Made by a program: the position numbers and the translations under genes. The notes beneath the pieces are model-generated. The model was not told where the DNA came from. It worked only from the letters and a program-made list of their open reading frames with translations, and searched no databases. A stretch of 64,000 bases of DNA from Flavisolibacter longurius (GTDB taxonomy: Bacteria > Bacteroidota > Bacteroidia > Chitinophagales > Chitinophagaceae), in the NCBI GenBank assembly GCA_013327885.1, contig JABUMY010000017.1:1-64000 (forward strand), given 5' to 3'. Below, in pieces: positions 21,630-43,526 of this stretch (position 1 is the first letter of the stretch; every line of letters starts with the position of its first letter).

Positions 21630-21669
21630 GCAAACGATTGCGCAAAACCAAACTTGCTCAATCGTTTGC
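21630..21669. promoter_or_regulatory. paired LacI-type operator
   Basis: GCAAACGATTGCGC (21630-21643) and GCTCAATCGTTTGC (21656-21669) are inverted copies differing at one of 14 positions, with centres 26 bp apart. The pair lies between the sugar transporter (minus strand) and the CBM9-like gene (plus strand) and could serve both. Similar sites are at 23976-24012, 44520-44555 and 48435-48446. Confidence 0.75.
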
Positions 21670-21761
21670 ACACTTCTGCAAGGTGCGCTTTGTTTAGGTT
21701 TGAAAAGGCGAATGGGCAGCAATTTCTTTTTCTATCGTTAAAGAGAAAAGGTATTGTATGA

Positions 21762-22472: not shown

Positions 22473-22563
22473 CAGAAAAGACTTTGCCCGCTAAGCCTTT
22501 GGTTCGCGAATGAAAAATTGAACAGAAAACGATAAATTGACGAAACAACTAAATTGCTGCACT

Positions 22564-24240: not shown

Positions 24241-27192
24241 ATGAGGAAACGATTGTCACACGCTGCTGCCAGCCTTAAAGGTTTACTGATTGGTTCCGTT
24301 TTATTCCCGGCTTCGGTATTGAATGCACAAAAGGATTCAGCCATCCGGCACAACGATACCGCTTCGTTAACGGTTACGGCCAATGGTGCGCTGGCACCCC
24401 GTTCGCTCACAGGTGGCCTGGCCAGCACGGTGCCGTTGCAAAATGTAAATGCGCATCCCTACCTCTCCCTGCAGCAAATGCTCAAAGGGAATGTCGCCGG
24501 TGTACATATACAGGAGCCCAGCGGCGAACCGGGTACAGAACAAAACATTTTTATCCGTGGCATCAGTTCACCGCTGCTGAGCAAGCGGGAACTGTTCGAC
24601 CAGCAGGCGGCTGTTTACCTGAACGGCATACCGCTGACAGGCGACAATCCTTTTGTGTATGAGATACAGAAATATGACTTCAACCGTGTTGGACCGGCAA
24701 CCAACCTGCTTGCTGCTGTCAATCCTAATAACGTTCAATCGATCGAGGTCATAACCGACCCAGTACGGCTTGCAGCGCTGGGACCGGTAGCTGCTAACGG
24801 TGCCATCTGGATCACCACCAAAAATGCGCATGCGGGTTACCGTGAGATCAGTGTCAACACCTACACGGGCCTGGCACTGCGGCCACAGATAACACCGGTG
24901 AATGCCGCTTACGAAAATGATTTTCGCAAACCGTTTTACAATCAGTTTGGCACCATCAACGACCGGCTAAACTACCCGCCGTTTCTTCGCGATTCTACCA
25001 ATGCCGATTATTACGGGCCGGCCAATTGGGGGGATGTATATTATAAAAACAGCCTGCTGTACAACGTTGATATGAGCCTGACGGGTGGTTCGGAACGGGC
25101 CAACTTCCGGTTCTTTACCGGTGTGACAAAAAATGCCGGGAATGCCGACAATACAGCTCTCAACCGCTACACCGGTTCGTTCTTTATCAACGTAGCGCCA
25201 CTGCACTGGCTAATGGTTTCTAGCATGATCAATTACAACAAGCTGGATCGTACCCGCAACCGCAATGTACGCGACCGTCTTGCCGAGCAGCGCTACATTC
25301 CCGATCTTATCAACCCACTCACGCCGAACAGGAACCTTTACACGGCCTACCTCACGGAGTTTGACAAAGCCATCGACCGCAACTCGTCAGACCTGGTGCA
25401 GGGATACCTTTCCATCAGTGCCAACCTGCACAAGTTTCGCTACAAAGGGCAATTGAGCTTTGATTATAACGAAGGGCTCCGCGAAGCGTTCTGGCCCACC
25501 ACGTTGCTGGAAGGAAACAATTTTGTATCGAACTATTTTGGGTACAACCAGCGTTCAGTGATCAGCAACACACTGACGTATGGCATTGACCTTGGTGGTG
25601 GAAAAAGCCTGTCGCTGGAAGGCGGGCAAAGCTTTCAATCCGACGAATACAAATACAACTATGCTTATGCCTACAATACACCTAATGATTATATCAAGAT
25701 CAACGTGGTGAATGGTGACCCTAACGCTGCCGATTACCTCGACCCGAGGGGCTTCCGTGTGTATTATTTCCCCGGTAAAATGCAGGCAAGGCTGGCGTCT
25801 TTTTACGGTCAGGCTACTTACGATCACAAAGGGATCTTCAGCCTGAGTGGCGTTGCCCGTCGCGATGGTTCTTCTAACATGCAACCCGATAACCGGTGGT
25901 TCACTTCGTTTTCCGGTGCCGCCGGTTGGAACATCAAAGAGCATTTGCTTAGCGACAACAACACCTTTAGCTCCCTTTCCCTCAATGCCTCGTTTGCCCG
26001 CCTGGGCAAGCTATTGAGCGATGACCGCTTTAGTGCCGGACCGCAATACCGTGTTGACCTGGGCTGGAGCAACGAACCCACCATTGGTTCCTATGCCGGG
26101 CTACCGGGCATTTCCCGGCCTTATACAAGCGGCTGGGTAGGTTACGGCATTCCCGGGGCTTACAGTGATAAACTGAATATTGGTGTGAAGCTTGGCCTCG
26201 CAAACGAAAGGATCAAGCTGGCGCTGGATGCGTACAGCCGCGATGACAAGGACATGCTGCTGCCGATACCGGTGGCTTCGGAATGGGGTTACACCGGCGC
26301 TTATCTCTCCGGGCTGCGTGTTGCCAACAAAGGATTGGATTTTTCTTTACTGGCTGATATTGTTCCCGCCAAAAATAACGGCTTTAGTTGGGTGCTTACC
26401 ACCAATGCCAATTACAACAGGAATAGCTTAAAAGCCTTGCCCGATGGGTTGAGTGAACTGGTGATCGGCAACCAAAAGCTGGTGGTTGGCGAAAGGGTAG
26501 ATGCGTTCTGGTTGCTGCAGAATAAGGGTGGCTTTGCCACTGACGCTGATGTGCCGGTATCGCCGCAAACAGGCCAAAAGCTCAATTTTAAAGGTGTTGC
26601 CCTAAAAGCCGGCGATCCCAGTTGGGCTGACCTGAACGGTGATCATACCATCAACGATGCAGACAAAACCCTGATGGGACAATACATGCCGAAAGTTACC
26701 GGCGGGCTCGGAAGCTCGTTTGGATACAAAGCATTTACCCTTGATGTACAGTTTTATTTTGCCCTGGGACACAATGCGCTTAACCGCTATGCCGCTTCGC
26801 GTCTTGATTTCATTAACACGGAAGTGGCCAATAATATCAACTCGGTGAAAGAGATCACGTTCTGGGAAAAGAAGCAGGACCTGTCAAGTTTCCCTGTTTA
26901 CAATCCCTGGAGTACAGTAGTGGCTTACCGTCCCGACCAGGACCTGTTTTTAGAAGACGCCTCGTTTGTAAAACTGCGTTCCCTGACACTGCGGTACAAC
27001 CTGTTGAAAAATACAACCCAGACAAACCGCCTACTGAAAGGCTTCAGCGTTTATGCAACGGCAACCAACATGTTCACCCTTTCTTCTTTCAAAGCCGATG
27101 ATCCCGAACTGGTGAATTACAACGGTTATTACGATGGGTACGGGTTACCGATTCCGCGGGCCATCATTGCCGGTGTAAAGCTCGATCTCTAG
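24241..27192 (+). CDS. SusC-type TonB-dependent outer-membrane transporter (first of three)
   Basis: About 983 residues. A signal peptide (MRKRLSHAAASLKGLLIGSV...) ends near VLNAQ. It then goes almost directly into the plug domain (LSLQQMLKGNVAGVHIQEPSGEPG, IFIRGISS, IEVITDPVRLAALGPVAANGAIWITT); the N-terminal carboxypeptidase-regulatory-like domain usual in SusC proteins is missing. The barrel occupies the rest and ends AIIAGVKLDL. I chose ATG at 24241; 24196 would add 15 residues before the signal peptide. It should import a glycan or glycopeptide with the SusD partner 44 bp downstream. First gene of the LacI-controlled operon. Confidence 0.93.
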   Translation: MRKRLSHAAASLKGLLIGSVLFPASVLNAQKDSAIRHNDTASLTVTANGALAPRSLTGGLASTVPLQNVNAHPYLSLQQMLKGNVAGVHIQEPSGEPGTEQNIFIRGISSPLLSKRELFDQQAAVYLNGIPLTGDNPFVYEIQKYDFNRVGPATNLLAAVNPNNVQSIEVITDPVRLAALGPVAANGAIWITTKNAHAGYREISVNTYTGLALRPQITPVNAAYENDFRKPFYNQFGTINDRLNYPPFLRDSTNADYYGPANWGDVYYKNSLLYNVDMSLTGGSERANFRFFTGVTKNAGNADNTALNRYTGSFFINVAPLHWLMVSSMINYNKLDRTRNRNVRDRLAEQRYIPDLINPLTPNRNLYTAYLTEFDKAIDRNSSDLVQGYLSISANLHKFRYKGQLSFDYNEGLREAFWPTTLLEGNNFVSNYFGYNQRSVISNTLTYGIDLGGGKSLSLEGGQSFQSDEYKYNYAYAYNTPNDYIKINVVNGDPNAADYLDPRGFRVYYFPGKMQARLASFYGQATYDHKGIFSLSGVARRDGSSNMQPDNRWFTSFSGAAGWNIKEHLLSDNNTFSSLSLNASFARLGKLLSDDRFSAGPQYRVDLGWSNEPTIGSYAGLPGISRPYTSGWVGYGIPGAYSDKLNIGVKLGLANERIKLALDAYSRDDKDMLLPIPVASEWGYTGAYLSGLRVANKGLDFSLLADIVPAKNNGFSWVLTTNANYNRNSLKALPDGLSELVIGNQKLVVGERVDAFWLLQNKGGFATDADVPVSPQTGQKLNFKGVALKAGDPSWADLNGDHTINDADKTLMGQYMPKVTGGLGSSFGYKAFTLDVQFYFALGHNALNRYAASRLDFINTEVANNINSVKEITFWEKKQDLSSFPVYNPWSTVVAYRPDQDLFLEDASFVKLRSLTLRYNLLKNTTQTNRLLKGFSVYATATNMFTLSSFKADDPELVNYNGYYDGYGLPIPRAIIAGVKLDL

Positions 27193-27236
27193 CCTCATCC
27201 CATTCAAAACAAAAATGAATACCAAACAAAACACGT

Positions 27237-28796
27237 ATGATAACGGTACTGTATAAACGTTTTGGAAAACTGAAGCCGGCGCTCGTCCTGCTGCTTTTGC
27301 TGGCAACGGCCTCCTGCAACAAGCAGTTGGATGTGGATGCCTCCCGGCAGGCCAAAGAGGCAGGTCACTGGACAAAATACGAAGATGCCCGCAGCGGACT
27401 CATAGGACTTTACGGCCTGTTTCGTGCCGCCGTTGCCGATAACAACGCACACTGGATGTGGGGCGAACTTCGCCAGGGCGACTTCCGATCGGTTTTCCGC
27501 CCGGACCTAAAAGCCATCACGGAAGGCAATCTCAATGCTTCGTTTCCGCTGCTGGAAAGCGTCAGCAACTGGCGCCGATTTTACGCGGTGATCAACGCCA
27601 GTAACTTATTTATTGAAAGAGTGCACGGTTGCCTGGCCGACAAACGCTACACCGAATCTTACTTAAAGCTGGATATTGCGCAGGCCCGCACCATTCGTGC
27701 TTTTGCTTATTTCTACATGTCCAGGATCTGGGGTGATGTGCCGCTGATCACCCGATCAAACGATGGTGAGTTTGAGTCTCTGCCCCGCACTAAACAGGAA
27801 GCCGTGCTTTCGTTTGCCGAAACAGAGTTGGTGGACGCTGCGCAGGCCCTGCCTTACCTCTATTCGGGCAACGATCCTGAGCAGTTGTTCCCGGCCAACT
27901 ATTACGGTGTGTCGCAGGACACCTGGTTGAATGCACCATTCAACCGGCTGGCGGCCTATGCCATTCTTGCCCACATCAGCGCCTGGCAGGGACATTACCT
28001 GGATGTGGCCACCTACACGGATTTTATCCTAAACAACTATACCAAAAGCAACCTCAGTTTTGTTACTACCGACCAGTTGGTGAGCCCAACTGGTTTTTTC
28101 CAGGCAGGCAATGAAAACTATAACCAACTGTCGGCGTTCAACTTTATTTACAGTCGTGGCGAAACCACAACCGATGGTCACATTGAGCAACTGACGCTTG
28201 CCAATACCACCAACTACACTATGTCGAAGCAACTGCCCGACATCTATGTACCCAAGGATTCCATCTCCCGGATCTTTCCTTCCGGCTTTGGCAACGACCA
28301 GCGTTTTGGTATCGACATCCGTTACACACCGGCTCTCCTGCTAACAACTTATTTTGAAAACTACAACGCCGAAGTGCCGGTGTTTAAAAAGATCCGCGTG
28401 GTGAACGGAAACGTGTCGGGAAATTTTGCGGTGTACAATTCCTCTATTGTGTTTACAAGGCTTGAAGAGATCCGGCTCCTGCGTGCCGAAGCCCTGGCCG
28501 TTGTGGGAGCGCAAAGTGAAGCCGTGGTGCAGCTAAATGCTGTTCGCACCAGCCGCGGACTGCAACCCGTAACACTTTCTCCTTCGATTGACCTGCTCAC
28601 AGAAATTTTTGCCGAAAGAAGACGCGAGCTGATGGGAGAGGGCTGGCGCTGGTACGACCAGGTTCGGTACAACCGCCTGAAAAGAACAGACCCCGCTTTT
28701 AATGTCCTGCTTACCGAAGGCGGCATCTACTGGCCTGTTGCAGAAGAGGTGCTGACTCGCAATCCCAGGATCGAACAAAACAGCTTCTGGCGTTAA
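27237..28796 (+). CDS. SusD/RagB-family surface glycan-binding lipoprotein
   Basis: A 519-residue lipoprotein with lipobox LATASC, so it is anchored in the outer membrane. The helical TPR scaffold includes RRFYAVINASNLFIERV and ARTIRAFAYFYMSRIWGDVPLIT, the SusD signature. The C-terminal SusD part includes EEIRLLRAEALAVVGAQSEAVVQLNAVR and FAERRRELMGEGWRWYDQVRYNRL. It binds the ligand for the SusC partner encoded 44 bp upstream. Ligand not predictable. Confidence 0.94.
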   Translation: MITVLYKRFGKLKPALVLLLLLATASCNKQLDVDASRQAKEAGHWTKYEDARSGLIGLYGLFRAAVADNNAHWMWGELRQGDFRSVFRPDLKAITEGNLNASFPLLESVSNWRRFYAVINASNLFIERVHGCLADKRYTESYLKLDIAQARTIRAFAYFYMSRIWGDVPLITRSNDGEFESLPRTKQEAVLSFAETELVDAAQALPYLYSGNDPEQLFPANYYGVSQDTWLNAPFNRLAAYAILAHISAWQGHYLDVATYTDFILNNYTKSNLSFVTTDQLVSPTGFFQAGNENYNQLSAFNFIYSRGETTTDGHIEQLTLANTTNYTMSKQLPDIYVPKDSISRIFPSGFGNDQRFGIDIRYTPALLLTTYFENYNAEVPVFKKIRVVNGNVSGNFAVYNSSIVFTRLEEIRLLRAEALAVVGAQSEAVVQLNAVRTSRGLQPVTLSPSIDLLTEIFAERRRELMGEGWRWYDQVRYNRLKRTDPAFNVLLTEGGIYWPVAEEVLTRNPRIEQNSFWR

Positions 28797-28805
28797 TTCA
28801 AAACC

Positions 28806-29504: not shown

Positions 29505-29543
29505 TCCTTCCACAACACGATTGAAAAAAGAAGATACGTAAGC

Positions 29544-30599
29544 ATGAAAAAATATACATTTCAAACAACGCTTCCGCTCAAATTTTTGCTGGCAGCAACA
29601 GTGCTGCTCAGTGTGGTGGTTTCCTGTAAAAAATACCTGCCGGAAGAACGGGAAACAGTAGGGGTGGACTCGCAGTTTACCATCGACCTCCTGCAACCGG
29701 TATTGGGCCGTACCACTTATTTCTCCAATACCTTTTTTAAAGGGAGCACCACGTTCCCGGCCGATTTTAAGATCGTGAATGTGCGTCGCCGCAACGGTGA
29801 TGCTGCTCCTGAACTCACCGATGTTTTTCCTGTCAAAGTTTGGAAAGAAGCCTATGATGGCACCGAAACTTCCCTGGCGGAAATTGAAGCCAAGCGGCAA
29901 TTGCAAAACAGGCCGCTTTTCGAGATCGGTCCGCACTCCGGAGAGTTTATCATGTGGGGAGAGGCCCGTTCGAGCTTTGTACGTTCGCAGCCTGATTCGG
30001 GATACCTGTTCGATGTGGAATTGAGCAATTCCGGTGGCCGGCGTTATTTCCGCAATTTCCGCCTGATGCCGATGAAGGAGCGTCCGTTTGAGCCTTCCAA
30101 CGTAAACGCCATTTCAGGACAGCCGCTTTCTAACGGCGTTTTTCCCAGCCAGGTTACCCTCATCAAAGGTGCTTCCAAAGACCGTTACCTTTCTTTTTTC
30201 GACGTTGATGTTTTTATCCGCAAACAGCTTGACCCCACAAAATCCGGCAGCGGCAACACGCTAACGTTCAAATTTCGCGATACCCTGTACAAACCCATGA
30301 ACCCGGCGCAGTTCTCTACTACAAACTGGGCCAGCCTGGTGCACGGTTTCAACATGAAAATGACCGATTCATCTGTCACGTACGATGTAGCCTACCCGGT
30401 ACCGTTAGTGGAACTGCCAACAAAATTCACCAGCCCTGATGGCAAGCGGGCAAGGGTTCGTTTTACGTATTCAAGAATCGGTTTTGGCGGCAGCCGCGAG
30501 GATGCCTCTTTTGGCCTTGACTTCGCTATCTATGAACCGGGCGACTGGGAGATCGTTTTTGCCTTTAAGAACGACAATCCAAAATTCATCAATGACTAA
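29544..30599 (+). CDS. DUF5007-like surface lipoprotein
   Basis: A 351-residue lipoprotein with lipobox VVVSC followed by KKYLPEERE. It looks beta-rich with repeated strands (FPADFKIVNVRRRNGDAAPEL, RARVRFTYSRIGFGG, DWEIVFAFKND) and is similar to DUF5007 proteins, which are found next to SusC/SusD genes in Bacteroidota. No catalytic motif. Probably a ligand-binding accessory at the outer membrane. It ends 34 bp before the second susC start, so both modules are on one transcript. The family name is from memory of sequence pattern and context. Confidence 0.65.
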   Translation: MKKYTFQTTLPLKFLLAATVLLSVVVSCKKYLPEERETVGVDSQFTIDLLQPVLGRTTYFSNTFFKGSTTFPADFKIVNVRRRNGDAAPELTDVFPVKVWKEAYDGTETSLAEIEAKRQLQNRPLFEIGPHSGEFIMWGEARSSFVRSQPDSGYLFDVELSNSGGRRYFRNFRLMPMKERPFEPSNVNAISGQPLSNGVFPSQVTLIKGASKDRYLSFFDVDVFIRKQLDPTKSGSGNTLTFKFRDTLYKPMNPAQFSTTNWASLVHGFNMKMTDSSVTYDVAYPVPLVELPTKFTSPDGKRARVRFTYSRIGFGGSREDASFGLDFAIYEPGDWEIVFAFKNDNPKFIND

Positions 30600-30632
30600 T
30601 TCAGCTTCGTTAACAAAGCAAAATTGACTTCA

Positions 30633-33600
30633 ATGAGAATAAAGATTTACCTGCTCTCCCTTGCTTTGACAGCCCTTTTCTGCACGGAAGGTTTTGCGCA
30701 AAACAAGATCACTGTATCAGGTGTGGTCAGGGATAAGAATGGCGATGCCGGTATGAGCGGCGTAACCATTGCGGCCGGCAACCCGCCAAAAACACTGGGC
30801 ACCACCGATGATAAAGGTTCGTTCACGGTAAGCGTGGATGCCGGTACCTCCCTGCAATTTTCGTTCAGCGGGTACGAGACCGTGAACCGCACCGTAACCG
30901 CAGGCAGCCGTGCGTTGGAGATCACGCTGGCACCGCGCCAAAATTCGATGACGGAGGTGATCGTCCAGGGCTTTAAGTCAAAGACCCGCGAAACCTCAAC
31001 GGGTTCCAGTACCATCATTACGGGTAAAGCCTTGCAGGACGTACCGGTGTCAAACGTGATGGAACTGCTGCAGGGAAAAGTGGCCGGCCTGAACATCCAG
31101 AATAACAACGGTTCGCCCGGTGGCATGGGAACGATACAGATGCGTGGTCTTTCTTCCGTTAACATTTCTGCCGATGGATTTCTCACGCCAACATCACCCT
31201 TGTTTGTAATCGATGGTGTGCCGGTGGATGTAAATACCAACTACGAATACGGCTTCCAGGGTGGTGGCCCCGGCATTAGCCCGCTGGCGCTGATCCCACC
31301 GGAAGACATCGAGCAAATGGATTTTTTGAAAGATGCGGCCGCCACTTCGCAATACGGTTCCCGCGGTGCCTATGGTGTCATCATCGTCACCACCAAACGC
31401 GGTAGTTCCAAAGTGCCCATCATCCAGTATTCATCTAACTTTTTTGTAAAAAGCCCGCCCAAGCTGCGCAACGTGATCGGTGGAAAAGAAGAACGCTTAA
31501 GCCGCATCCGGGCCATTATGGCGTATGATACCAGCTATGCCGCCGCGCAGGCGCTTATCAATGGCACCAATTTCTTAGCTGATAGCTTAAACCCATATTT
31601 CAACAACGCTACCAACTGGCAGGATTATTTTTTCCGCTCCACCTACAACCAGCAGCACAACCTGAGTATCTCGGGTGGTGATGTGCGTTTCAATTACAAA
31701 ACAAACCTGAACTACTACCAGGAGAACGGTATCATTCAAAACACCGGCTTCCGTCGCTACTCGCTGAGCATGAATGCAGCCTACCAGCCAACGGAAACCT
31801 TTCGTGCCATGATCAACCTCAGCACATCGCTGGGACAAAAGCAGAACGGCAGCGGGGTAGGCCTGGTGCAGACCGGTGTGGCTTCGGGTGCTTCCACTTC
31901 ATCATTATTGCCACCACCATCGCTGTTCTCCGAAAACAACAGTGTGCTGGCTGCATCCACAGTAAAGAACAACAACAAAACCTCCAACATTTCCTCTTCC
32001 TTCGATATTTCGTATGAGCCCATCAAAGGCATTCGCTTTGGCAACCTGTTAAGCTACAATTTTAACTCGGGCACGACGGATCGTTTTACCGCTTCTACAC
32101 TGAACAACGGATCATCGGAAGCCTATAGCTATAACGACCGCACCTATACTTTGTACAACCGCTCTATCATCAACTTTGTAAAAGCGGTGAACAACCTGCA
32201 CAATTTCAGCGGTTATCTTTTTAACGAGATCAACAGCTATGGCTTTAAAGCAAACGCCATCCAGTTGAACCAAACGGCGCACGACCAGGTGGAAGGACCG
32301 ATCGGGTACAATTCCAACATCACCGGCGGCGGTACGCTGAACAATATCAAGGACACAAGGCAACATGGCTACGGCGGTTCGTTTTCGTACAACTTCGACC
32401 GCAAATACGTGATTGATTTCAGTTACCGCTTCGACGGACTTTCTACCAACGGGCCTTCGCAGGGGTATTCGCAAAACCCTTCCATCAGTGCCCGCTGGAA
32501 CTTTGGACGCGAAAAATGGTTTGACAAAGCCTACTGGCTGAACTATGGTTCTATCCGCGCAAGCTGGGGCCGCAACATCAAGCCTACTGGTAACATCTTT
32601 GATGTGTACGGAAAATACATCGCCGGATCGCAGTACAACAACGATCCCACGGTGACCATCGATTTCGGTACAGCGCCTAACGTCAACTTCCTGCCCGAAA
32701 CACAAACGCAAACCAACGTTGGTCTGGAGTTTGGCCTTTGGGACAATACCGTCAGCGCTACGTTTGAAACCTATTACCGCTCTATCGACAACCAGGTGAT
32801 TGGCGTAACGCTTGCCGACATCAACGGCTTTGGCAAAGTGCAGACCAACGCAGTAAGTCTTGTTAACTATGGCTTTGATTACAGTACTACGTTCCGCTTA
32901 TTCAAGAAAAGAAAAGTGAACTGGGACCTGAGCATCAACGGTGCCCTAAACCGCGATGTGCTGACACAGCTTCCCAACGGCCTGCGGCAAATGGAAATCT
33001 CCATCAACGACGCCGGTGGCAGTGTTCCCATTATCTACCGCATTGGCCGCAACTCGTTGTCCAACCTGCTGTACCATACGCAAGGCGTTTATGGCAGCAC
33101 GGGCGACGTGCCGGTAAACCTGGCAACAGGCAGACGGCAGCAACTTGGCGCCGGATCAGGCTTTTATTTCCAGGGTGGCGATCCCCGCTGGACAGATGTT
33201 AACGGCGACTACGTGATCGATGCCAATGATCTTTTGCCCCTTGGCAACCCGGTTCCGAAAGTAACGGGCGGTATCAATTCGCGTACAACCTACAAAGGCT
33301 TTACGCTGAACGTAAACGTTACGTATACGCTTTTCCGTGACCTCCTGAATTCTACCATGGCAGGCATGTTCCAGAACTACATTGTGCCGGTGCCGGCCAA
33401 CGGCCAGCCAACAGCCTTGCTGCCGATCAATGATTTTAATTTCTGGCGGCCAACCGATATGGGCAAAGGCGTGGGCACTGTGGATGCGGCCTTTCCTAAC
33501 CCTTATGATTTTCGCAGGGCGGGCATTCTGCAGCCTTTCCGCACCAACCAAACGCTTTTCCTCGAGGACGGATCGTACTGGAAGATCAACAACGTGGTGG

Positions 33601-33800: not shown

Positions 33801-33821
33801 AAACCTGAAAGAAGAAACAAC

Positions 33822-35369: not shown

Positions 35370-35388
35370 CCTAACCTGCTTTACCACA

Positions 35389-36105: not shown

Positions 36106-36147
36106 GAGCGACCAAAACAATCATTCATTCCACATTATAACATTGAT

Positions 36148-37785
36148 ATGATCAGATTCATAAACAGAACACTAGGGAAAAAAGCAGTGCCGCTTTATGC
36201 GATGGCATCCCTGCTTTTCTTTTCCTGTGTAAAATCAAAGTTTGAGCCGGTTGAGCACTACCCCGACCCGCCGCCAACGCTGGTAAAATTTGTTGACCGT
36301 ACGCCCAACCCGGCCATTGGTGCCGAAGGCTCTGTGGTCACCTACCAGGTAACCGGCCTGAAAGGAAAGGAAGGGCAATTTAAATTCTTTCTCAACCAAA
36401 CCGAAGCTGAAGTGGTGGAAGTGCAGGAAGCTGCGGTAAAGGTAAAAGTGCCGGCCAATGCCAGCACCGGTGGCGCTGCTGTGCTGATCAACGGTGAATA
36501 TTATTTTGGACCGACCTTCACCGTGCGGGGTAAAGTGACCATCGATCCGTTGTTCAATACCGATGCTTACCGCAGCAATGCATTCATCGAGGGCATTATC
36601 AAAGCTTCGGGAACCAACTATCTTCTTTATGGCGGCTTTTCCAATTACAACAACAAAGCAACTACCGACAAACCTGTTACCGGTATTGCCCTGGTAGATG
36701 TGAACGGCGTGTTTGCCGGTACGCAGTTGAACATGGGTAAGGAAGGCTTGAATGGCCCGGTAGGCGGCGTGATCTTTACACCCAGCAGCAAGTTCCTGCT
36801 TGCCGGGTCGTTTACAAAATTCGATACGGTCGGCAACATCAATAACCTGGTGCGGGTCAACAATGACGGCACCCTGGAAACGATGGTGGTAGATGTGATC
36901 AATCCCGATCCCGCCAACTTTCCTGATGACAGCAAAGCCACCGTGCCTTCCTTCAACGGTGGTACCCTCGGTGCTATCTCTAAATTATTTACGGATAACC
37001 TTGACCGTGTGATCGCCGTTGGCAACTTTTTCGGGCATACCAGCACATTTTATGAGCGTTCCACCAAAACAGGACCTTTTCTCGACAGGGTGGAAGTGCG
37101 GCAGATAGTACGGATGAACAGCGACGGCTCTTTTGACTCTACCTTCAATTTTGACAGGGCAACAGGGAAAAGTTATGCCGGCGGCAACGGCTATGTTTAC
37201 GACGCCGTGCAACTGTCGAACGGCAAGATCATCCTGGCCGGCAACTTTACCAATTTTAGCGGCAAAACGGTTAACTACATTACCGGCATCAACATGGAAA
37301 CCGGCTTGCCGGACGAAAGCTTCAACAGCGGCGGTACCGGTGCCGATGGTCCTATTCAACAGGTAACCTACAACAGTGCCACGGGGCGGTTACTGCTCAC
37401 CGGTACCTTCCGCCATTACAATGGTCAGGAGGCTAACGGTGTAGTGATGATCAAAGAAGACGGCAGCATCGATCCTTCCTTCACATTCAGAACAACTGCA
37501 GGCGGCATTCCCAATTTTGCCGGCCAGTTGACCAATGGAAAAGTCATTGTATCGGGCTCGTTTACGCACTACGACGGCATTGTGCGTCCGGGCATGGTCA
37601 TACTCAATGCCGATGGTTCGCTGGCTGCCGGTTATAACAACCTGGGTCTATTCCGCGGGCAGGTAAATGATATGATCGAAACACCGGCCGTCGCCGGCGT
37701 TCCAACGGTCATTCTCGTCGGGTCCTTCGATCGCTTCGACAACAGGCAGGTTGGCAACATTGTCAAGTTTCGCATTGAAAATTAA
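36148..37785 (+). CDS. DUF5008-like lipoprotein with IPT/TIG and delta-60 repeats
   Basis: A 545-residue lipoprotein with lipobox LFFSC. Residues about 45-130 look like an IPT/TIG immunoglobulin-like domain (PNPAIGAEGSVVTYQVTGLKG... AVLINGEYYFGPTFTVRG). The remainder is a delta-60-type propeller with repeated DGSFDSTFNFDRATG, DESFNSGGTGADG and DGSIDPSFTF units and KIILAGNFTNF/KVIVSGSFTHY strands. The architecture fits DUF5008 proteins of SusC/SusD operons and suggests a surface glycan-binding protein rather than an enzyme. It is the counterpart of the DUF5007-like gene in the first module. Confidence 0.75.
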   Translation: MIRFINRTLGKKAVPLYAMASLLFFSCVKSKFEPVEHYPDPPPTLVKFVDRTPNPAIGAEGSVVTYQVTGLKGKEGQFKFFLNQTEAEVVEVQEAAVKVKVPANASTGGAAVLINGEYYFGPTFTVRGKVTIDPLFNTDAYRSNAFIEGIIKASGTNYLLYGGFSNYNNKATTDKPVTGIALVDVNGVFAGTQLNMGKEGLNGPVGGVIFTPSSKFLLAGSFTKFDTVGNINNLVRVNNDGTLETMVVDVINPDPANFPDDSKATVPSFNGGTLGAISKLFTDNLDRVIAVGNFFGHTSTFYERSTKTGPFLDRVEVRQIVRMNSDGSFDSTFNFDRATGKSYAGGNGYVYDAVQLSNGKIILAGNFTNFSGKTVNYITGINMETGLPDESFNSGGTGADGPIQQVTYNSATGRLLLTGTFRHYNGQEANGVVMIKEDGSIDPSFTFRTTAGGIPNFAGQLTNGKVIVSGSFTHYDGIVRPGMVILNADGSLAAGYNNLGLFRGQVNDMIETPAVAGVPTVILVGSFDRFDNRQVGNIVKFRIEN

Positions 37786-37808
37786 ACTAACGAAAACGTT
37801 CAAGCAAT

Positions 37809-39566
37809 ATGAAACAATTTACTATCGGGTTCAGGTCAGTTGCAGCAAGGTTTGCCTGCATCCTGGCAGGTTTTGTGCTCCTGCTGACCGCCTGTAACAA
37901 ACCCTTTCCTGACACAAGGGAAAAAGATGGGGGTGGCAATGGTGAGCAGGCCGCTATGCAACGCAAAGTCATGCTGATTGTGGTTGATGGCGCCGTGGGC
38001 TCGGAGGTAAGAGCAGCGCTGCCACCAACGCTTAACAGCCTCCTTGATTTTTCTATTTATTCCTGGGATGCGCTGAGCAGCTACCAGAACGCACCTGTTA
38101 CGAACGCCGAAGGCTGGGCCAACCTGCTCACCGGTACGGGCAGTAGCAAGCACAATGTGTCGACCGAAGATTTTGCCGGTAACAACCTGGCCGATTATCC
38201 CTCGCTGTTCACCCGCCTGAAGCAGGAAAAGCCGTCCTTACAATCGGTGGCCATTACGGCTTCGCAAAGCCTGGCAACAAATCTTGCGGCCGATGCCACA
38301 AAAAAAGAAACCAAGGGGAGTGATGCCGCGGTGAAAGAGGCGGTGATAGCCGAATTGTCTTCCGGCAATCCTGATCTCCTGTTGGCACAGTTCAGCAGTG
38401 TGGACGAAGCCGGTAAAGCGGCGGGTTATTCCGTGGCGTCCGCCGGGTACAAAGCCGCCATCCTGCAGGTAGATGCCTACATTGGCGAGATCCTCACGGC
38501 CATGCGTAACCGTACGAATTTTGCCGCTGAAAACTGGATGGTACTGATCACTTCCAACAAAGGCAGCAATACCGTATTTACGCCGCCCGGCGGCTCACAA
38601 TGGAATGCATTTAACGATGCAGCCCACAATACGTTTTTTATTAATTACAATCCGCGTTTTGTCAGCCAAAACCCGGCAAAGCCCTCCACCATTATTCCTT
38701 ACGTTGGTACTACGCCGCTTTATGTTGACCAGGAAACCAGTCGCTCCCGTGTGCTGAATCCGCAGACCAATTTGGATATGGGCGCCACTGGTGGCTATAC
38801 CATCCAGTGCAAGGTGAAGATCCCGCCCGGAGGCTATTATTATCCGGCCATTATCGGAAAGCGGGCAAGTTTTGCCGGTGGCCAGGTAGGTTGGGTCTTT
38901 TTCCTGGAAGGCAATATCTGGATGATGAACATGAGCCAGGCAGGCGCCGGCAACCGGCAGGTAGCCGGCGGCGTGGTGGCCGACAACCAGTGGCATACAT
39001 TGACTGCCGTAGTAAGACAGGAAGGAACGCAGCGTAACGTTTATGTGTACACGGATGGTGTGCCCAGTTCAGGCAAAACCAATATTGCTGACTGGGGCAA
39101 CATGAGCAGCCCGGCACCGCTGACCGCCGGTTTTATTCCGGGGTCACGAAATGGCGGCAGCTATAGTCCCAACAACTTCCGCATTACGGATATCCGTTTG
39201 TACAACACCGCATTGCCTGCCGACTACATCGCTTCTAATTATTGCAAAACCGATGTAGGAGCCGACGATCCTTACCGCGACAACCTGCTAGGCTTCTGGC
39301 CTGCCACCACCGTTTCGCCAGACAAGTTGATGGCGGACCTGAGTGGCAACAACAACCCCATGACGGTGGACAGCTACAACCCGGGATCGTTCAGTGATAT
39401 TTCAGCCTCTGTTTGTCCCAGCATTTCCGAAAGTATTTACGCCACCGTTCCCAATTCGGTTGATGTCGTTTTCCAGATCTACCAGTGGCTGGGCGTGATT
39501 GCACCGCCATCCTGGCAGCTTGACGGCAAAAGCTGGATACCGGCCTACTCAGATGTAAAAGGATAA
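37809..39566 (+). CDS. DUF4983-type lipoprotein: degenerate phosphodiesterase domain plus LamG
   Basis: A 585-residue lipoprotein (lipobox LLTAC). Residues about 55-250 follow the alkaline-phosphatase/type I phosphodiesterase fold: VMLIVVDGAVGSEV holds the first metal Asp, and NAEGWANLLTGTGSSKHNV matches the nucleophile loop. But the later metal motifs are altered: DLLLAQFSSVDEAGKAAG has K where relatives have H, and LITSNKGSNT replaces the usual SDHG. Residues about 290-460 form a LamG/concanavalin-like domain (YTIQCKVKIPPGGYYYPAIIGK... NQWHTLTAVV... VYTDGVPSSG). It is probably a non-catalytic surface glycan binder. A paralogue follows at 41693. Confidence 0.78.
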   Translation: MKQFTIGFRSVAARFACILAGFVLLLTACNKPFPDTREKDGGGNGEQAAMQRKVMLIVVDGAVGSEVRAALPPTLNSLLDFSIYSWDALSSYQNAPVTNAEGWANLLTGTGSSKHNVSTEDFAGNNLADYPSLFTRLKQEKPSLQSVAITASQSLATNLAADATKKETKGSDAAVKEAVIAELSSGNPDLLLAQFSSVDEAGKAAGYSVASAGYKAAILQVDAYIGEILTAMRNRTNFAAENWMVLITSNKGSNTVFTPPGGSQWNAFNDAAHNTFFINYNPRFVSQNPAKPSTIIPYVGTTPLYVDQETSRSRVLNPQTNLDMGATGGYTIQCKVKIPPGGYYYPAIIGKRASFAGGQVGWVFFLEGNIWMMNMSQAGAGNRQVAGGVVADNQWHTLTAVVRQEGTQRNVYVYTDGVPSSGKTNIADWGNMSSPAPLTAGFIPGSRNGGSYSPNNFRITDIRLYNTALPADYIASNYCKTDVGADDPYRDNLLGFWPATTVSPDKLMADLSGNNNPMTVDSYNPGSFSDISASVCPSISESIYATVPNSVDVVFQIYQWLGVIAPPSWQLDGKSWIPAYSDVKG

Positions 39567-39605
39567 GGACCGAAAACGAAAAGAACCAAAATAAAAGGAT
39601 CGAAC

Positions 39606-41603
39606 ATGCAGCAACTTGTTCTGTTTAAAAAAATGAATGTTCTTCTTCTCCTGGCAATTGTCTTTGCGGCCTGCCAGAAGAAGAATGATTTTAACTACAC
39701 CGATGGCACACCCGGTGACGGCGAACCCACATCGAATATCAGCGTGGATACTGCCAACAAAGGCGTGGACGTAAGCAAATACGCCCAGGCAAGGGTGTTC
39801 CCGGGTCTTGTTTGCGCGGATGAACCACGGTTGCAAAACCTGTCGGTAACACTGGACCTGAACTACAATTATGTAGGGGAGAAGCTGCGCATCAACGTGC
39901 CGCCGCAGCCACAGTTCAGCACCGGTTTGTATGCCGCACCCGGCGAACTGGTAACGATTGATGTGCCGCCCGGTGAGTATTCCCTTTCGGCGCAGATCGG
40001 TGCCTGGACCGACAACCTTTCCGCCATTCAAACGCCACCCCGCGACCCGGTGATCTACTCCCGTACCCAACTGGCGCCGGGCCGCAACTACCTGCGCAAC
40101 CTGTATGGCGGCCATATTTACATTTACGCCGGCCGGCCGCTTCCAACACCCCTTAACCTGGTGTTCAGCAACGTGGTCAGATCACCTGATTACGTACTGG
40201 GAAAAACAACCAATGAAACCTGGAAAGCTGCGGTTGCTGCCTCCTGTGTTCCCTGGATGGAACTGCGCAGTGAGAACATGATCTTCGTGGTGCCGCGTGA
40301 ATATATCCTGTCACGACCCATTGCCGATATCACGGCCTCCATGCAGGAGTGGGACAATATCATCAAATACGATTTTTACGAGTGGGAAGGCCTGGTGGAA
40401 AACCCTGCCGATCCTGTTGACAAAGCACCGTTGCTGCCCCTGCGCATCGTGCTCGACATCATGCCTTCCGTAGGCTACGGGCACAGCGGCTGGCCCATTG
40501 TGGCTACCAACGATTATTCCTGGTACGATGGTATTGGCAACGTGGCAATGATTAACGGCGGCGGTAACTGGGGTTATTACCACGAAGTAGGCCACAACAA
40601 CCAGCAACCGTCTTACTGGAGCTGGAGTTCACTTGGTGAAGTTACCAACAACCTGTTTGCGTTTAAAGTGGCCAACCGGCTGAAAGCGCAGATACCCCAG
40701 GCCTGGCCACCGAAGCACCCCTCACTGGCGGGCAGCATTCCGGCTGCTTTGCGCTTTGCTGCCGATCCGTCCACCACAAAAAACTTTGATGGCACAGATG
40801 CCCGCATCCACGATCCGTTTGCCCGCCTGACGCCTTTCCTGCAAATCTTCGACAATGTGCCGGCGGGGATGAACTACGATGGTTGGGGTTTCATGACCGA
40901 ATTGTACAAAAAAGCAAGAAGGGCACAGCGCATCTCCCTAACGGACCAGAACAAACGTGATTTTGTGTATGAAACGCTTTGCGATTATACAGGCCGCGAC
41001 TGGATCTATTTCTTCAACGCCTGGGGCATTACCGTTAGCAATATTGCGCAGGCAAAAAAGGCAGGTTTGCCAAAAATGCTCCAGCGTCTTTGGGAGTATA
41101 ACCCCCTGACCCGCACCGGTGGGGATGGACTGATTCCAACGGCCTGGATACCTTACAGCAACACCGGCTGGACGATCCGTTCATTCAGTTCGGAGGAAGC
41201 TGGTGGCGAAGGTCCCGTGAACGGCTATGCCCGTGCCATTATTGATGGTAACGCGAATACGTTCTGGCATTCCCGCTGGTCGGTAGGCGGCTTTACAGCG
41301 CCTCACTGGATCGTTTTTGATATGGGTGCTGTGCAGCCGGTGGATGGTTTTGTATTTACGCAACGCCAGAGCCTCACCCGTAACCTGAAAAATGTTAGGG
41401 TGGAGACCAGTAACGATGCCGCTACCTGGACCCTCGTGAAAGGCAGTCCGTTTGCGCTGACGCAAACAGCACCGGCGCAGGAAATAAGGCTGACGGAAGT
41501 GCTGGATGCCCGGTATATCCGAATCACCGTTCCTACAACTGCAGATGTGTTTGACGGAACCCAGTTTGCCGCGCTGGCAGAATTTACTGCCCTTCATCCC
41601 TAA
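39606..41603 (+). CDS. M60-family (mucinase-type) metallopeptidase lipoprotein with F5/8C domain
   Basis: A 665-residue lipoprotein (lipobox VFAAC). The peptidase M60/enhancin-like domain covers about residues 70-490. The zinc site is H326-E-V-G-H330, with the third ligand probably E345 in SLGEVTNN, matching the M60 gluzincin pattern HEXGH-x(8-28)-E. The C-terminal ~140 residues are an F5/8 type C carbohydrate-binding domain (ANTFWHSRWSVGG... PHWIVFDMGAVQPVDGFVFTQRQS). Known M60 enzymes cleave mucin-type O-glycoproteins next to glycosylated Ser/Thr. It is the one clear degradative enzyme of this operon. ATG at 39636 is an alternative start. Confidence 0.9.
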   Translation: MQQLVLFKKMNVLLLLAIVFAACQKKNDFNYTDGTPGDGEPTSNISVDTANKGVDVSKYAQARVFPGLVCADEPRLQNLSVTLDLNYNYVGEKLRINVPPQPQFSTGLYAAPGELVTIDVPPGEYSLSAQIGAWTDNLSAIQTPPRDPVIYSRTQLAPGRNYLRNLYGGHIYIYAGRPLPTPLNLVFSNVVRSPDYVLGKTTNETWKAAVAASCVPWMELRSENMIFVVPREYILSRPIADITASMQEWDNIIKYDFYEWEGLVENPADPVDKAPLLPLRIVLDIMPSVGYGHSGWPIVATNDYSWYDGIGNVAMINGGGNWGYYHEVGHNNQQPSYWSWSSLGEVTNNLFAFKVANRLKAQIPQAWPPKHPSLAGSIPAALRFAADPSTTKNFDGTDARIHDPFARLTPFLQIFDNVPAGMNYDGWGFMTELYKKARRAQRISLTDQNKRDFVYETLCDYTGRDWIYFFNAWGITVSNIAQAKKAGLPKMLQRLWEYNPLTRTGGDGLIPTAWIPYSNTGWTIRSFSSEEAGGEGPVNGYARAIIDGNANTFWHSRWSVGGFTAPHWIVFDMGAVQPVDGFVFTQRQSLTRNLKNVRVETSNDAATWTLVKGSPFALTQTAPAQEIRLTEVLDARYIRITVPTTADVFDGTQFAALAEFTALHP

Positions 41604-41692
41604 CGCTGGTGAAGCAGCCGCGAGCAACCACTGTTAACGGCAACGCTGAACGGCAAAGGAGTCGTTCAATTATCAACAGGAAAAAAAAGAAA

Positions 41693-43423
41693 ATGAAAAA
41701 AGCTACATCAATCATTTTTTTAGCAATAGCCATACTGGTCGTATACGCCTTGCCTTCGTGCAAGCGCTATTACGATCCGCCACCTTATTTTGAGGAGCCG
41801 GGAGACACGGCCAGGCTGTCGGCCCGCAAGGTGCTGATCATCGGTATCGACGGTGCTGTCGGCAGCGAATACAAAGCCATCAAAGCGCCGGTGCTGGAGA
41901 GTATGAAGGCGCACAGTAAATACTCCTGGGAAGCGGTTTCCGACGAGGTGACCACCAGCGCCGCTTCGTGGAAAACACTGGTGACCGGTATTTCTTATGG
42001 CCGTCATACCATTTCTGACAGCACATTCATTTATACCCAACCGCCGGGTGGTGATCTGCATGGCGAGATCAAGTCCTATCCTTCGTTCTTTAACTATATT
42101 CTTTCCTCTTCGCGGTCCGACCTGAAAACAGTCTTTATCAGCCAGTGGGGAACCTTGCTGAACCGCCTGGTGCCCGAGGTGGAGAGCAAGGTACAGGTGC
42201 AGAGCGATGCGGCCGCAAAAGATTCCGCCGTCAGCCGGTTAAAAAATACCAATGCCGACCTCATGATCGTGCATTTCAACAGCCCGGCTGCAGCTGGCAA
42301 GGCAGGTGAATTTTCCGCCACATCGTCAACTTACAAAGACGCCGTATTAAAAGTGGATGGCTATATCGGCGAGATCATGACAGCGCTGAAAGCAAGACCT
42401 GAATACAACAAGGCAGAAGAGTGGCTGGTGATCGTAACCGGAACACATGGCGGTATGGATAATAACTATGGCGGTTCTTCGGCTGGCGAAACCAACGTGG
42501 TATCGTTTTACTACAACGAAAACATGAAGCCGACAGAGTTGACGCGAAACGGTGCATTTGCCGGTGTGCAGTTGAAAGGCACCAACGATGCCGTTATCCG
42601 TGCGCAACTGGAAGGTGATAATGGTCAGTACAACCCAGAGAGGGGCGAGCAAACCGTGCAGATAAGGATCAAAGGAACAGCCGGTGCGTACCCGCATTTT
42701 TTCTCCAAAATGCAAACCTGGCCCTCTACAGCAGGCTGGTCGATGTTCACAGCCGGCAGCGCCTGGGCTGTATCGGTACGATCTACTACCAGCGGCGAAA
42801 GAAGGATCCAGCCGGGGTCTCCCAACGTGTTCGACAACCAATGGCATACTATCACCATGGTGTTTGCCGACAGTGCCGGCAAGCGTTGGCTGCGTCGCTA
42901 TACCGATGGTGTACGGCATGACCAAACAGACATTACAAACCTCTATGACAATGGCGGAACCATCACCTCTTCTTCGCCGTTAACAGTGGGCTGGCAGGCA
43001 GACCGCGGTATGCCGGCGGTGACGATGTACCCAGCCGATATCATGATCTACAACACAGCCCTTTCTGATGCGGAAATAGCGGGTGCCCGTTGCCTGAAAG
43101 ATGTGACGGCTCACCCCAAAAACAATCACCTGATTGGCTACTGGCCGGGCAACGATGGCTTTGGCAGTTCGTTCCGTAACCTGGCGCAGGGACAAACGGC
43201 CAGCTTTCACCTGGAAGGTGGTTTCCAGTGGCAAAGCCTGCCCGACCTGCCCTGTTCCCTAACACCGCAGGGCGGCAACAGTGGCTTTAAAAGCCTGCTG
43301 GTAAAAGGTGTTGACGTGGTTGCTACCAGCCTTTATTGGCTGCGCATCCCGGCCAACAGCAAATGGGGACTGGAAGGTGCCACCTGGATCCAGGAATACG
43401 AGATCGAGTTTGTAAAAATATAG
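41693..43423 (+). CDS. DUF4983-type lipoprotein, paralogue of 37809
   Basis: About 576 residues, lipobox LPSC. It has the same order as the 37809 protein: a phosphodiesterase-like domain (VLIIGIDGAVGSEYKAIKAPVLE, TTSAASWKTLVTGISYGRHTI) and a LamG-like domain (FDNQWHTITMVFADSAGKRWLRRYTDGVRHD). Metal motifs are again degenerate but differently: DLMIVHFNSPAAAGKAG lacks the Asp and His of the second motif, while VTGTHGGMDN keeps the histidine of the SDHG motif and loses its Asp. I chose ATG at 41693 because it starts the signal peptide; the longer frame is intergenic. Last gene of the operon, followed by a strong terminator. Confidence 0.78.
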   Translation: MKKATSIIFLAIAILVVYALPSCKRYYDPPPYFEEPGDTARLSARKVLIIGIDGAVGSEYKAIKAPVLESMKAHSKYSWEAVSDEVTTSAASWKTLVTGISYGRHTISDSTFIYTQPPGGDLHGEIKSYPSFFNYILSSSRSDLKTVFISQWGTLLNRLVPEVESKVQVQSDAAAKDSAVSRLKNTNADLMIVHFNSPAAAGKAGEFSATSSTYKDAVLKVDGYIGEIMTALKARPEYNKAEEWLVIVTGTHGGMDNNYGGSSAGETNVVSFYYNENMKPTELTRNGAFAGVQLKGTNDAVIRAQLEGDNGQYNPERGEQTVQIRIKGTAGAYPHFFSKMQTWPSTAGWSMFTAGSAWAVSVRSTTSGERRIQPGSPNVFDNQWHTITMVFADSAGKRWLRRYTDGVRHDQTDITNLYDNGGTITSSSPLTVGWQADRGMPAVTMYPADIMIYNTALSDAEIAGARCLKDVTAHPKNNHLIGYWPGNDGFGSSFRNLAQGQTASFHLEGGFQWQSLPDLPCSLTPQGGNSGFKSLLVKGVDVVATSLYWLRIPANSKWGLEGATWIQEYEIEFVKI

Positions 43424-43438
43424 CCGAGAAATAGCCAC

Positions 43439-43472
43439 AAGACCCCGGGCGGACCAACCCCCGGGGTCTTTG
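43439..43472 (+). terminator. terminator of the 19-kb operon
   Basis: AAGACCCCGGG (43439-43449) pairs with CCCGGGGTCTT (43460-43470). The stem is very stable, though the T-run is short. Confidence 0.85.
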
Positions 43473-43526
43473 AATGTCTTTTGGTTACCATCTGATTGAT
43501 TTGTTGCAAGCTAAACAGGCTGGCGT

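What the first reader, a model, noticed from the sequence alone, without database searches (positions are those of the whole stretch)
24241..43423. 19-kb operon with two SusC-SusD-fasciclin modules and one mucinase-type peptidase
Eleven genes have gaps of 10-90 bp, one operator pair in front and one strong terminator behind. Module 1 is SusC, SusD, FAS1, DUF5007-like; module 2 is SusC, SusD, FAS1, DUF5008-like, DUF4983-like, M60, DUF4983-like. There is no glycoside hydrolase. This is unlike classical polysaccharide loci and suggests uptake of glycopeptides made by the M60 enzyme.
Basis: partly seen in the sequence, partly recalled or inferred. Interest (0 to 1): 0.75.

Follow-up and report, generated by a model that had tools for sequence, protein, structure and literature searches.

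The report
Conserved eleven-gene glycoprotein uptake operon
A Bacteroidota genome carries an eleven-gene surface operon, kept in the same order from soil bacteria to gut Bacteroides, that probably binds and imports sugar-coated proteins and in which two, sometimes three, of the 'enzymes' have lost their active sites.

Summary
The operon is real: 11 co-directional genes with short gaps, a LacI-type operator pair in front and a hairpin behind. (1) Both 'DUF4983' proteins begin with an alkaline-phosphatase-superfamily domain. None of 78 aligned copies of either keeps the catalytic set (at most 2 and 3 of 6 residues), so they look like pseudoenzymes. (2) The unit is old. The order SusC-SusD-FAS1-DUF5007-SusC-SusD-FAS1-DUF5008-PDE1-M60-PDE2 holds, as far as each stretch reaches, in every M60-bearing relative examined, including Pedobacter, Sphingobacterium, Mucilaginibacter and Bacteroides. 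In one clade (mostly Bacteroides) M60 has also lost its zinc site, and five related units lack M60 and carry carbohydrate-binding modules on FAS1 instead. The constant part therefore looks like a glycan-binding import apparatus with optional proteolysis. 'No glycoside hydrolase' holds only inside the operon: operator-like sites precede a GalNAc/GlcNAc 1-kinase gene and a sulfatase gene, and a sialic-acid/fucosidase/GH20/GH109 cluster follows 9-35 kb downstream, pointing to mucin-type O-glycoproteins here. The gut version probably corresponds to B. theta PUL5, an arabinogalactan locus, so cargo differs by lineage. All functions are inferred from sequence.

The parts
20272..21579 (-). MFS sugar transporter, NagP/GluP-like, divergent from the CBM9-lacI pair
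   Evidence: TIGR01272 gluP 316.9 bits (above its cut-off); NF046060 NagP 418.5 bits (below its cut-off of 625)
21631..21672 (.). LacI-type operator-like pair between the MFS gene and the CBM9-lacI pair
   Evidence: 1- and 2-mismatch matches
21762..22472 (+). CBM9_2 protein
   Evidence: PF16011 2e-60
22537..23598 (+). LacI-family regulator, probable regulator of the operon
   Evidence: PF00356 plus periplasmic-binding domains; 50-51% identical LacI divergent to the same operon in G009 and G109, and a homologue in L182
23975..24013 (.). operator pair in front of the operon
   Evidence: two exact CAAACGTTTGCGCA copies in opposite orientation
24196..27192 (+). SusC1 (TonB-dependent transporter; likely start 24241)
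   Evidence: Plug PF07715; start judged from the signal peptide
27237..28796 (+). SusD1 lipoprotein
   Evidence: PF07980, PF14322
28806..29504 (+). FAS1a lipoprotein
   Evidence: PF02469 20.7 bits, just below cut-off; long orthologues in M60-less units above cut-off in 4 of 5 tested
29544..30599 (+). DUF5007 lipoprotein
   Evidence: PF16398 9e-90
30624..33800 (+). SusC2 with N-terminal CarbopepD_reg_2 domain
   Evidence: PF07715, PF13715
33822..35369 (+). SusD2 lipoprotein
   Evidence: PF07980, PF14322
35389..36105 (+). FAS1b lipoprotein
   Evidence: PF02469 20.5 bits, just below cut-off; two orthologues above cut-off
36148..37785 (+). DUF5008 + DUF5122 beta-propeller lipoprotein
   Evidence: PF16400 3e-6, PF17164 5e-28
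37809..39566 (+). PDE1: AlkP-superfamily pseudoenzyme + LamG lectin-type domain + DUF4983
   Evidence: PF01663, PF13385, PF16356; at most 2 of 6 catalytic positions in 78 copies; AF2 model matches Xac NPP and lectin-type folds
39606..41603 (+). M60 peptidase with M60-like_N and F5/8-type C domain; zinc motif intact here
   Evidence: PF13402 5e-39, PF17291, PF00754; H326 E327 H330 E345
41609..43423 (+). PDE2: paralogue of PDE1, 30% identical (likely start 41693)
   Evidence: PF01663 1e-9, PF13385; BLASTP 4e-64 to PDE1; at most 3 of 6 catalytic positions in 78 copies
43436..43475 (+). terminator-like hairpin
   Evidence: -25.0 kcal/mol; not listed by the scan
44519..44556 (.). operator-like site(s) before the kinase gene
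   Evidence: one 2-mismatch match; a second half-site read by eye in the sequence printed
44825..45865 (+). N-acetylhexosamine 1-kinase (NahK-like)
   Evidence: phmmer to 4ocu N-acetylhexosamine 1-phosphate kinase 9.9e-52
48432..48449 (.). operator before the sulfatase gene
   Evidence: one exact copy
48462..49931 (+). sulfatase
   Evidence: PF00884 2e-62
52054..63908 (.). separate cluster: GntR, SusC3/SusD3, DHDPS/NanA-family lyase, NanM-like, MFS, BNR sialidase-like, GlcNAc 2-epimerase-like
   Evidence: Pfam

Best explanation
The 11 genes form one inherited unit that builds a surface receptor-and-import apparatus for O-glycosylated proteins or glycopeptides. Two SusC/SusD gates each come with a FAS1 lipoprotein and a DUF5007 or DUF5008 lipoprotein. 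PDE1 and PDE2 are alkaline-phosphatase-fold pseudoenzymes fused to a lectin-type domain and most likely act as glycan-binding or scaffold proteins. M60, with its F5/8-type C module, trims the glycoprotein backbone in lineages where its zinc site is kept, as here. In this genome the cargo is most likely mucin-type (GalNAc-linked, sialylated) O-glycoprotein. LacI switches on the apparatus together with a sugar transporter, a GalNAc/GlcNAc 1-kinase and a sulfatase. Shown: gene content, order conservation, loss of catalytic residues, operator-like sites. Inferred: surface complex, cargo, binding role of the pseudoenzymes, regulation.
For: Order: the full 11 genes in 9 of 9 family relatives read whole, plus the window. 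Of 71 further long M60 loci, 68 keep DUF5007-SusC2-SusD2-FAS1b-DUF5008-PDE1-M60-PDE2 and the 3 misses are cut by contig ends. 16 of 16 upstream stretches, two of them from M60-less units, keep SusC1-SusD1-FAS1a-DUF5007-SusC2. Co-inheritance: pairwise distance correlations 0.79-0.97 among 8 gene trees over 67 common members. Pseudoenzymes: of 6 catalytic positions PDE1 keeps at most 2 and PDE2 at most 3 (78 copies each); 10 of 12 weaker AlkP-type hits from the family keep all 6. Fold: Xac NPP 7n1s, E 2.6e-8. Cargo: NahK-like kinase; NanA-family lyase, NanM-like, sialidase-like, epimerase, sialate esterase, two GH29, two GH20, GH16, GH109 and sulfatase downstream; weak likeness of PDE2's LamG part to a sialidase lectin domain (4c1w, E 1.1e-4). 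The 5 M60-less units examined carry CBM6/CBM35 or F5/8C modules on FAS1a.
Against: No binding, complex or expression data exist for this organism. B. finegoldii's unit sits beside GH43 genes, and the B. theta locus that I match to it responds to arabinogalactan, so the ligand is not one fixed substrate. The sialoglycan/GH109 cluster has its own GntR gene and SusCD, and the only operator-like match there (52608, 2 mismatches) lies inside the GntR gene, so the two loci may serve different substrates. The AlphaFold model is middling (mean pLDDT 71.7) and its TM-scores to NPP are low (0.28 by query, 0.41 by target). One Bacteroides member (L221) has an extra short ORF between SusC1 and SusD1. The window sulfatase, tried as a second control, did not align over the six positions. 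Terminator support is modest.
Confidence: 0.6

Rival explanations
1. One reading: a protease-driven peptide/glycopeptide uptake operon whose point is M60 cleavage, with the other lipoproteins as helpers.
For: The zinc motif HExxH is intact here and in 70 of 80 aligned copies; no glycoside hydrolase in the operon; BT4244-M60 is an O-glycopeptidase (PMC11992087 passages).
Against: 8 of 8 complete members of one clade keep the gene but not the zinc site, and 5 related units have no M60, so the rest of the unit is useful without it.
Confidence: 0.2
2. A plant O-glycoprotein (arabinogalactan-protein) uptake unit in all lineages, this one included.
For: B. finegoldii's unit lies beside an HTCS, a CBM4_9 protein and GH43 genes; product names of B. 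theta BT0269-BT0279 fit the order and BT0268 is driven by an arabinogalactan-responsive promoter. Several hosts carry plant- or soil-related names (titles).
Against: Around the window operon the genes scanned are of NahK, sialic-acid, GH20, GH29 and GH109 type; no GH43 appeared among the window and L059 genes that were scanned.
Confidence: 0.15
3. The two PDE proteins are active phosphodiesterases or phosphatases that process phosphorylated glycans.
For: Pfam PF01663 matches above cut-off and an NPP-like fold; B. theta BT3017 in another M60 locus is called a phosphatase.
Against: In 78 PDE1 copies the nucleophile, the GH histidine and the Asp of the DH pair are kept in none and the His of the pair in one; in 78 PDE2 copies the Asp of the pair is kept in none, the nucleophile in 7 and the GH histidine in 1, though the His of the pair is kept in 64. 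Ten ordinary relatives keep all six.
Confidence: 0.04
4. A chance or annotation cluster of unrelated surface genes.
For: One genome alone could not exclude it; promoter- and terminator-like sites are near chance level.
Against: Same order in the relatives examined, with mostly unrelated flanks, and correlated gene trees.
Confidence: 0.01

Closest known systems
Bacteroides thetaiotaomicron PUL5 (BT0262-BT0290), genes BT0268-BT0278
   Same: A table in PMC10434189 (passage) gives for BT0269-75: SusD, hypothetical, DUF5007, SusD, DUF5124; and for BT0277-79: carbohydrate-binding, alkaline phosphatase family, hypothetical. This fits the unit's order, and the DUF5008 slot of a Bacteroides MAG (G1045, the source of L147) carries DUF5008 plus DUF5124. 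An HTCS precedes it, as in B. finegoldii.
   Different: The table gives five product names for seven tags, so the exact register is my assignment. B. theta's sequence was not compared. Its locus is listed for arabinogalactan (PMC3243724 and PMC6874557, passages).
B. theta PUL BT4240-50 (mucin O-glycoprotein, GalNAc kinase)
   Same: M60 with CBM32, SusCD, GalNAc kinase and GH109 (PMC11992087, outline and passages).
   Different: One SusCD pair and GH2/GH109 named in the passages seen; the words fasciclin, FAS1 and phosphodiesterase do not occur in its text.
B. theta PUL-45 (BT3010-BT3017, M60 BT3015)
   Same: SusCD, M60 with F5/8C, a 'phosphatase', and no CAZymes (passages).
   Different: ECF-sigma/anti-sigma regulated; no FAS1, DUF5007 or DUF5008 in the passages seen.
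SusCD utilisome-type complexes
   Same: SusCD with extra surface lipoproteins (recalled, no call).
   Different: No physical complex is shown here; two gates and two or three enzyme-fold proteins without an intact active site.

Membership tests
SusC/SusD polysaccharide utilisation locus | tandem susC-susD genes | tested here: met
   two pairs, Pfam
SusC/SusD polysaccharide utilisation locus | carbohydrate-active enzymes in the same operon | tested here: not met
   no glycoside hydrolase, lyase or esterase family in the 11 genes; such genes only in a separate cluster downstream
SusC/SusD polysaccharide utilisation locus | dedicated sugar-type regulator | tested here: inconclusive
   LacI gene and operators by sequence; no binding test
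M60/PF13402 O-glycopeptidase | HExxH plus distal Glu | tested here: met
   window copy intact; absent in L141-L148, HQxxH in L083, L149 cut short
M60/PF13402 O-glycopeptidase | cleavage next to O-glycosylated Ser/Thr | not testable with these tools
   needs protein
Alkaline-phosphatase-superfamily phosphodiesterase | nucleophile and two-metal ligand set | tested here: not met
   0 of 78 PDE1 and 0 of 78 PDE2 keep all six positions examined; 10 control relatives do
FAS1 (fasciclin) domain | match to PF02469 above cut-off | tested here: inconclusive
   20.7 and 20.5 bits against 22 in the window; of ten FAS1-slot proteins of relatives scanned, six are above, one is below and three show none
BT4240-50-type mucin O-glycoprotein locus | M60 + GalNAc kinase + GH109 + GH2 in one locus | tested here: inconclusive
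   M60, NahK-like kinase and GH109 lie within about 35 kb but not in one operon; GH2 not seen among the genes scanned
B. theta PUL5 BT0268-BT0278 | same 11-gene order | tested here: inconclusive
   read from product names in a paper table, supported by a Bacteroides MAG's domains; B. theta sequence not compared

The most novel reading that the evidence does not exclude
A fixed eleven-part outer-membrane receptor machine, conserved as a block from soil to gut Bacteroidota, in which two gates share one surface complex and catabolic enzymes have been turned into glycoprotein-binding parts: two AlkP-fold proteins always, and M60 as well in the mostly-Bacteroides clade. The unit can change cargo (mucin-type to arabinogalactan-type O-glycoproteins) without changing gene order.
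Probability: 0.35. Interest if true: 0.8.

Novelty: new variant of a known kind. Interest (0 to 1): 0.62.

Why it matters
SusCD loci are known mainly for enzymes and for frequent reshuffling (recalled). A block of genes that keeps its order while its M60 protein diverges to 24-29% identity suggests that the parts work as one assembly. It gives a direct test of how glycoproteins, rather than free polysaccharides, are taken up, and of whether enzyme-fold surface lipoproteins without active sites serve as binding proteins. It also offers a likely role for DUF5007, DUF5008 and DUF4983. In the open-licence library searched, DUF5007 drew one mention and DUF5008 and DUF4983 none.

Tried and rejected
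Active phosphodiesterases: rejected on the residue counts. One universal ligand: not supported, because neighbours differ by lineage. DUF5008 as a marker of the unit across the class: most of the hits in 132 of 395 genomes are propeller repeats; 5 genomes show near-full-length matches in the listing. M60 alignment across the phylum: 57 of 395 genomes match, but most listed matches cover only the C-terminal F5/8C part and 3 are near full length. A single-domain AlkP-like protein of about 300 aa, common in Bacteroides, was checked as a possible unit member; the 4 loci looked at are not the unit. Full-length DUF5007 occurs in 6 of 158 Bacteroides genomes, none of B. theta's size as I recall it; since the paper names a DUF5007 protein in B. 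theta, it is probably not held, but this cannot be told. The 441-aa neighbour (46955-48280) has no Pfam, NCBIfam or PDB match at the thresholds used. Foldseek's lectin-domain hits include clostridial neurotoxin binding domains; these reflect a common lectin-type fold and say nothing about toxicity. Structure predictions of PDE2 and FAS1a were tried and never accepted.

Dropped or unexamined: L151-L155, short M60 matches without the unit, were left out. In the control, hits of 120 bits or more were left out beforehand, so the closer relatives of PDE1 were not tabulated; of the 12 kept, 10 align over all six positions, L040 keeps the four that align and L028 did not align. G124's unit is cut after PDE1 by its contig end. 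The units of G148, G929, G945 and G495 seen were not read. Double counting: from equal contig lengths at least four members occur twice in the 78- and 80-row tallies (L128/G083, L106/G109, L118/G009, L087/G103). L088, L092 and L139 have genes split into pieces; they were counted by fragments in the order check and not mended.
Full report
What is there. The window lies in contig C8 of a 5.75-Mb genome. The closest named relative by the M60 protein is Flavisolibacter longurius, 77% identical in the best segment. Eleven genes run from 24.2 to 43.4 kb on the + strand. Pfam gives, in order: SusC, SusD, FAS1 (just below cut-off), DUF5007, SusC, SusD, FAS1 (just below cut-off), DUF5008 with a DUF5122 propeller, PDE1, M60 with F5/8C, and PDE2. 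From the translations nine of the eleven look like lipoproteins, with a cysteine at the end of the signal peptide; this is my reading, and the pattern caught six of the nine. The two are paralogues, 30% identical.

Pseudoenzymes. The PDE1 profile aligns to Xanthomonas NPP (7mw8, 7n1s) over the second half of the catalytic domain and shows where those ligands should be; ligand names and numbers there are recalled. Six positions were tabulated. Of 12 weaker AlkP-type hits from genomes of the same family, 10 carry all six; one keeps the four that align and one did not align, nor did the window's sulfatase, tried as a further control. Closer relatives (120 bits or more) were left out of that control. 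In 78 PDE1 copies the nucleophile is kept in 0, the GH histidine in 0, the Asp of the DH pair in 0 and its His in 1; the first Asp is kept in 74 and the second in 24. In 78 PDE2 copies the Asp of the pair is kept in 0, the nucleophile in 7, the GH histidine in 1 and the second Asp in 1, while the first Asp is kept in 76 and the His of the pair in 64. An AlphaFold model of PDE1 (mean pLDDT 71.7) matches NPP (7n1s, E 2.6e-8, but TM-scores only 0.28 and 0.41) and, over its second half, lectin-type folds. PDE2's profile weakly matches a sialidase lectin domain (4c1w, E 1.1e-4). The fold seems kept and the chemistry not.

Conservation. Of 147 genomes of the window's family, 12 have an M60. Of their 16 M60 genes, 10 (one per genome) lie in the PDE-M60-PDE sandwich and 6 lie elsewhere (the six contexts). 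All nine relatives with the sandwich, read whole, carry the window's 11-gene order, with mostly unrelated flanks. A scan of named genomes gave 76 loci, of which 71 were analysed and 5 short matches without the unit left out. Of the 71, 68 keep the eight genes from DUF5007 to PDE2 in order and the three others are cut by contig ends; in most of these only eight genes were in view. They include Niabella, Lacibacter, Arachidicoccus, Pedobacter, Mucilaginibacter, Sphingobacterium, Bacteroides and a Dysgonamonadaceae bacterium. Sixteen upstream stretches were then fetched, two of them from M60-less units, and all keep SusC1-SusD1-FAS1a-DUF5007-SusC2. One Bacteroides MAG (L221) has an extra short ORF between SusC1 and SusD1. 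Trees of eight genes have pairwise distance correlations of 0.79-0.97 over 67 members. The unit is rare: 6 of 158 Bacteroides genomes have full-length DUF5007, and 3 of 395 genomes across the phylum show a near-full-length match to this M60.

M60 is optional. HExxH is present in 70 of 80 aligned M60 copies. It is absent in L141-L148 (five Bacteroides records, a Dysgonamonadaceae bacterium, one further Bacteroides MAG and one Sphingobacterium), is HQxxH in L083, and L149 is cut short. Four of the zinc-less proteins were scanned: all four match M60-like_N and the first part of Peptidase_M60. The group is a single clade in seven of the eight gene trees, with support 0.92 or more (only six of its eight members are in the DUF5007 tree); in the eighth, DUF5008, the clade also holds the cut-off L149. 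This fits one loss. Five related units examined lack M60. Three end in PDE1 followed by a protein with an F5/8C or PA14 domain, one of these matches being below its cut-off. One stops at DUF5008. In one the PDE1 position could not be read. In all five, FAS1a is 366-541 aa and carries CBM6/CBM35 (three) or F5/8C (two) modules, against 223-294 aa in the 24 M60-bearing units measured. A smaller SusC-SusD-FAS1-DUF5007 module exists in this genome (L231) and in others (L073, L078).

Regulation and surroundings in this genome. Operator-like sites recur before the MFS/CBM9-lacI pair, before the kinase gene and before the sulfatase gene. Three exact copies exist in the genome, all here, and five more with one mismatch, one of them here. 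G009 and Pinibacter aurantiacus (L182) keep the AAACGTTTG core upstream of SusC1 next to a divergent LacI; G109 has the LacI, but its fetched stretch was too short to show the site. The core is common to many LacI-family sites (recalled), so this is supportive only. Downstream are a NahK-like kinase, a sulfatase and then a separate GntR/SusCD cluster with NanA-family lyase, NanM-like, MFS, BNR and GlcNAc-2-epimerase-like proteins. The contig continues with a sialate esterase, two GH29, two GH20, a GH16, a GH109 and a sulfatase. This is what a mucin-type O-glycan pathway needs. B. theta BT4240-50 combines M60, a GalNAc kinase and GH109 in a similar way (PMC11992087, outline and passages). NahK homologues also lie next to the unit in L080, L100, L113 and L114 and upstream in L181. 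In ten loci (nine Pedobacter, one Sphingobacteriaceae MAG) GH2 and GH27 homologues follow the unit directly, with a short second M60 in nine of them; Pfam was run on one (L117), the rest by BLAST at 85-95% identity, so they are not independent.

A different cargo in gut Bacteroides. In B. finegoldii the unit is preceded by an HTCS and, divergent from it, a CBM4_9 protein with two GH43 genes; a third GH43 lies further out. This resembles B. theta PUL5, where BT0268 is the susC behind an arabinogalactan-responsive promoter and BT0267 the HTCS (PMC6874557 passages); PUL BT0262-90 is listed for arabinogalactan (PMC3243724 passages). A table in PMC10434189 names products for BT0269-75 and BT0277-79 that fit the unit's order (passage). 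It gives five names for seven tags, so the register is mine. The DUF5008 slot of a Bacteroides MAG (G1045) carries DUF5008 plus DUF5124, as that table requires. The main arabinogalactan paper cited in PMC8406133 (passages) is not held.

What is in print. Searches for DUF4983, DUF5007, DUF5008 and DUF5122 gave two papers: the iron study with the table above, seen in passages, and one on repeat proteins, seen only in the listing. Fasciclin with SusD gave three papers whose listed titles are unrelated. M60, arabinogalactan, peptidase and SusD together gave one, on chondroitin by its title. Only open-licence PMC papers were searched. The B. theta loci are known as PULs; in these searches I found no description of the conserved 11-gene block or of its pseudoenzymes.

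Verdict. It belongs to the broad SusCD kind, as a distinct variant. Function, cargo and complex formation are untested.

Noticed in passing
52054-63908 and L059:1-14736 (C8:64001-78736): A dense sialoglycan cluster: GntR, SusCD, NanA-family lyase, NanM-like, MFS, BNR, epimerase, sialate esterase, two GH29, two GH20, GH16, GH109 and a sulfatase.
   Followed up: partly
46955-48280: A 441-aa protein between a sugar epimerase-like gene and the sulfatase with no Pfam, NCBIfam or PDB match.
   Followed up: partly
L141-L148, M60 slot: M60-family proteins with the zinc site lost, keeping the N-terminal M60 domains in the four scanned.
   Followed up: yes
L083 10001-12016: Niabella drilacis M60 with HQxxH in place of HExxH.
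   Followed up: no
L088, L092, L139: Niabella loci in which several unit genes are split into pieces in correct order; decay or assembly errors.
   Followed up: no
L231 (own genome C48:92000-111999): A second, smaller SusC-SusD-FAS1-DUF5007 module in the same genome.
   Followed up: partly
L078 and L175: Short M60 genes (529-531 aa) directly beside a SusC-SusD-FAS1-DUF5007 module, apart from the 11-gene unit.
   Followed up: no
L164-L167: A stand-alone 299-305-aa AlkP-like protein, weakly related to PDE2, found in many Bacteroides genomes.
   Followed up: partly
2222-3199: IS110-family transposase upstream of the region.
   Followed up: no
16969-19077: DUF5122-propeller protein with a Por secretion tail, sharing the propeller family with the DUF5008 protein.
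   Followed up: no
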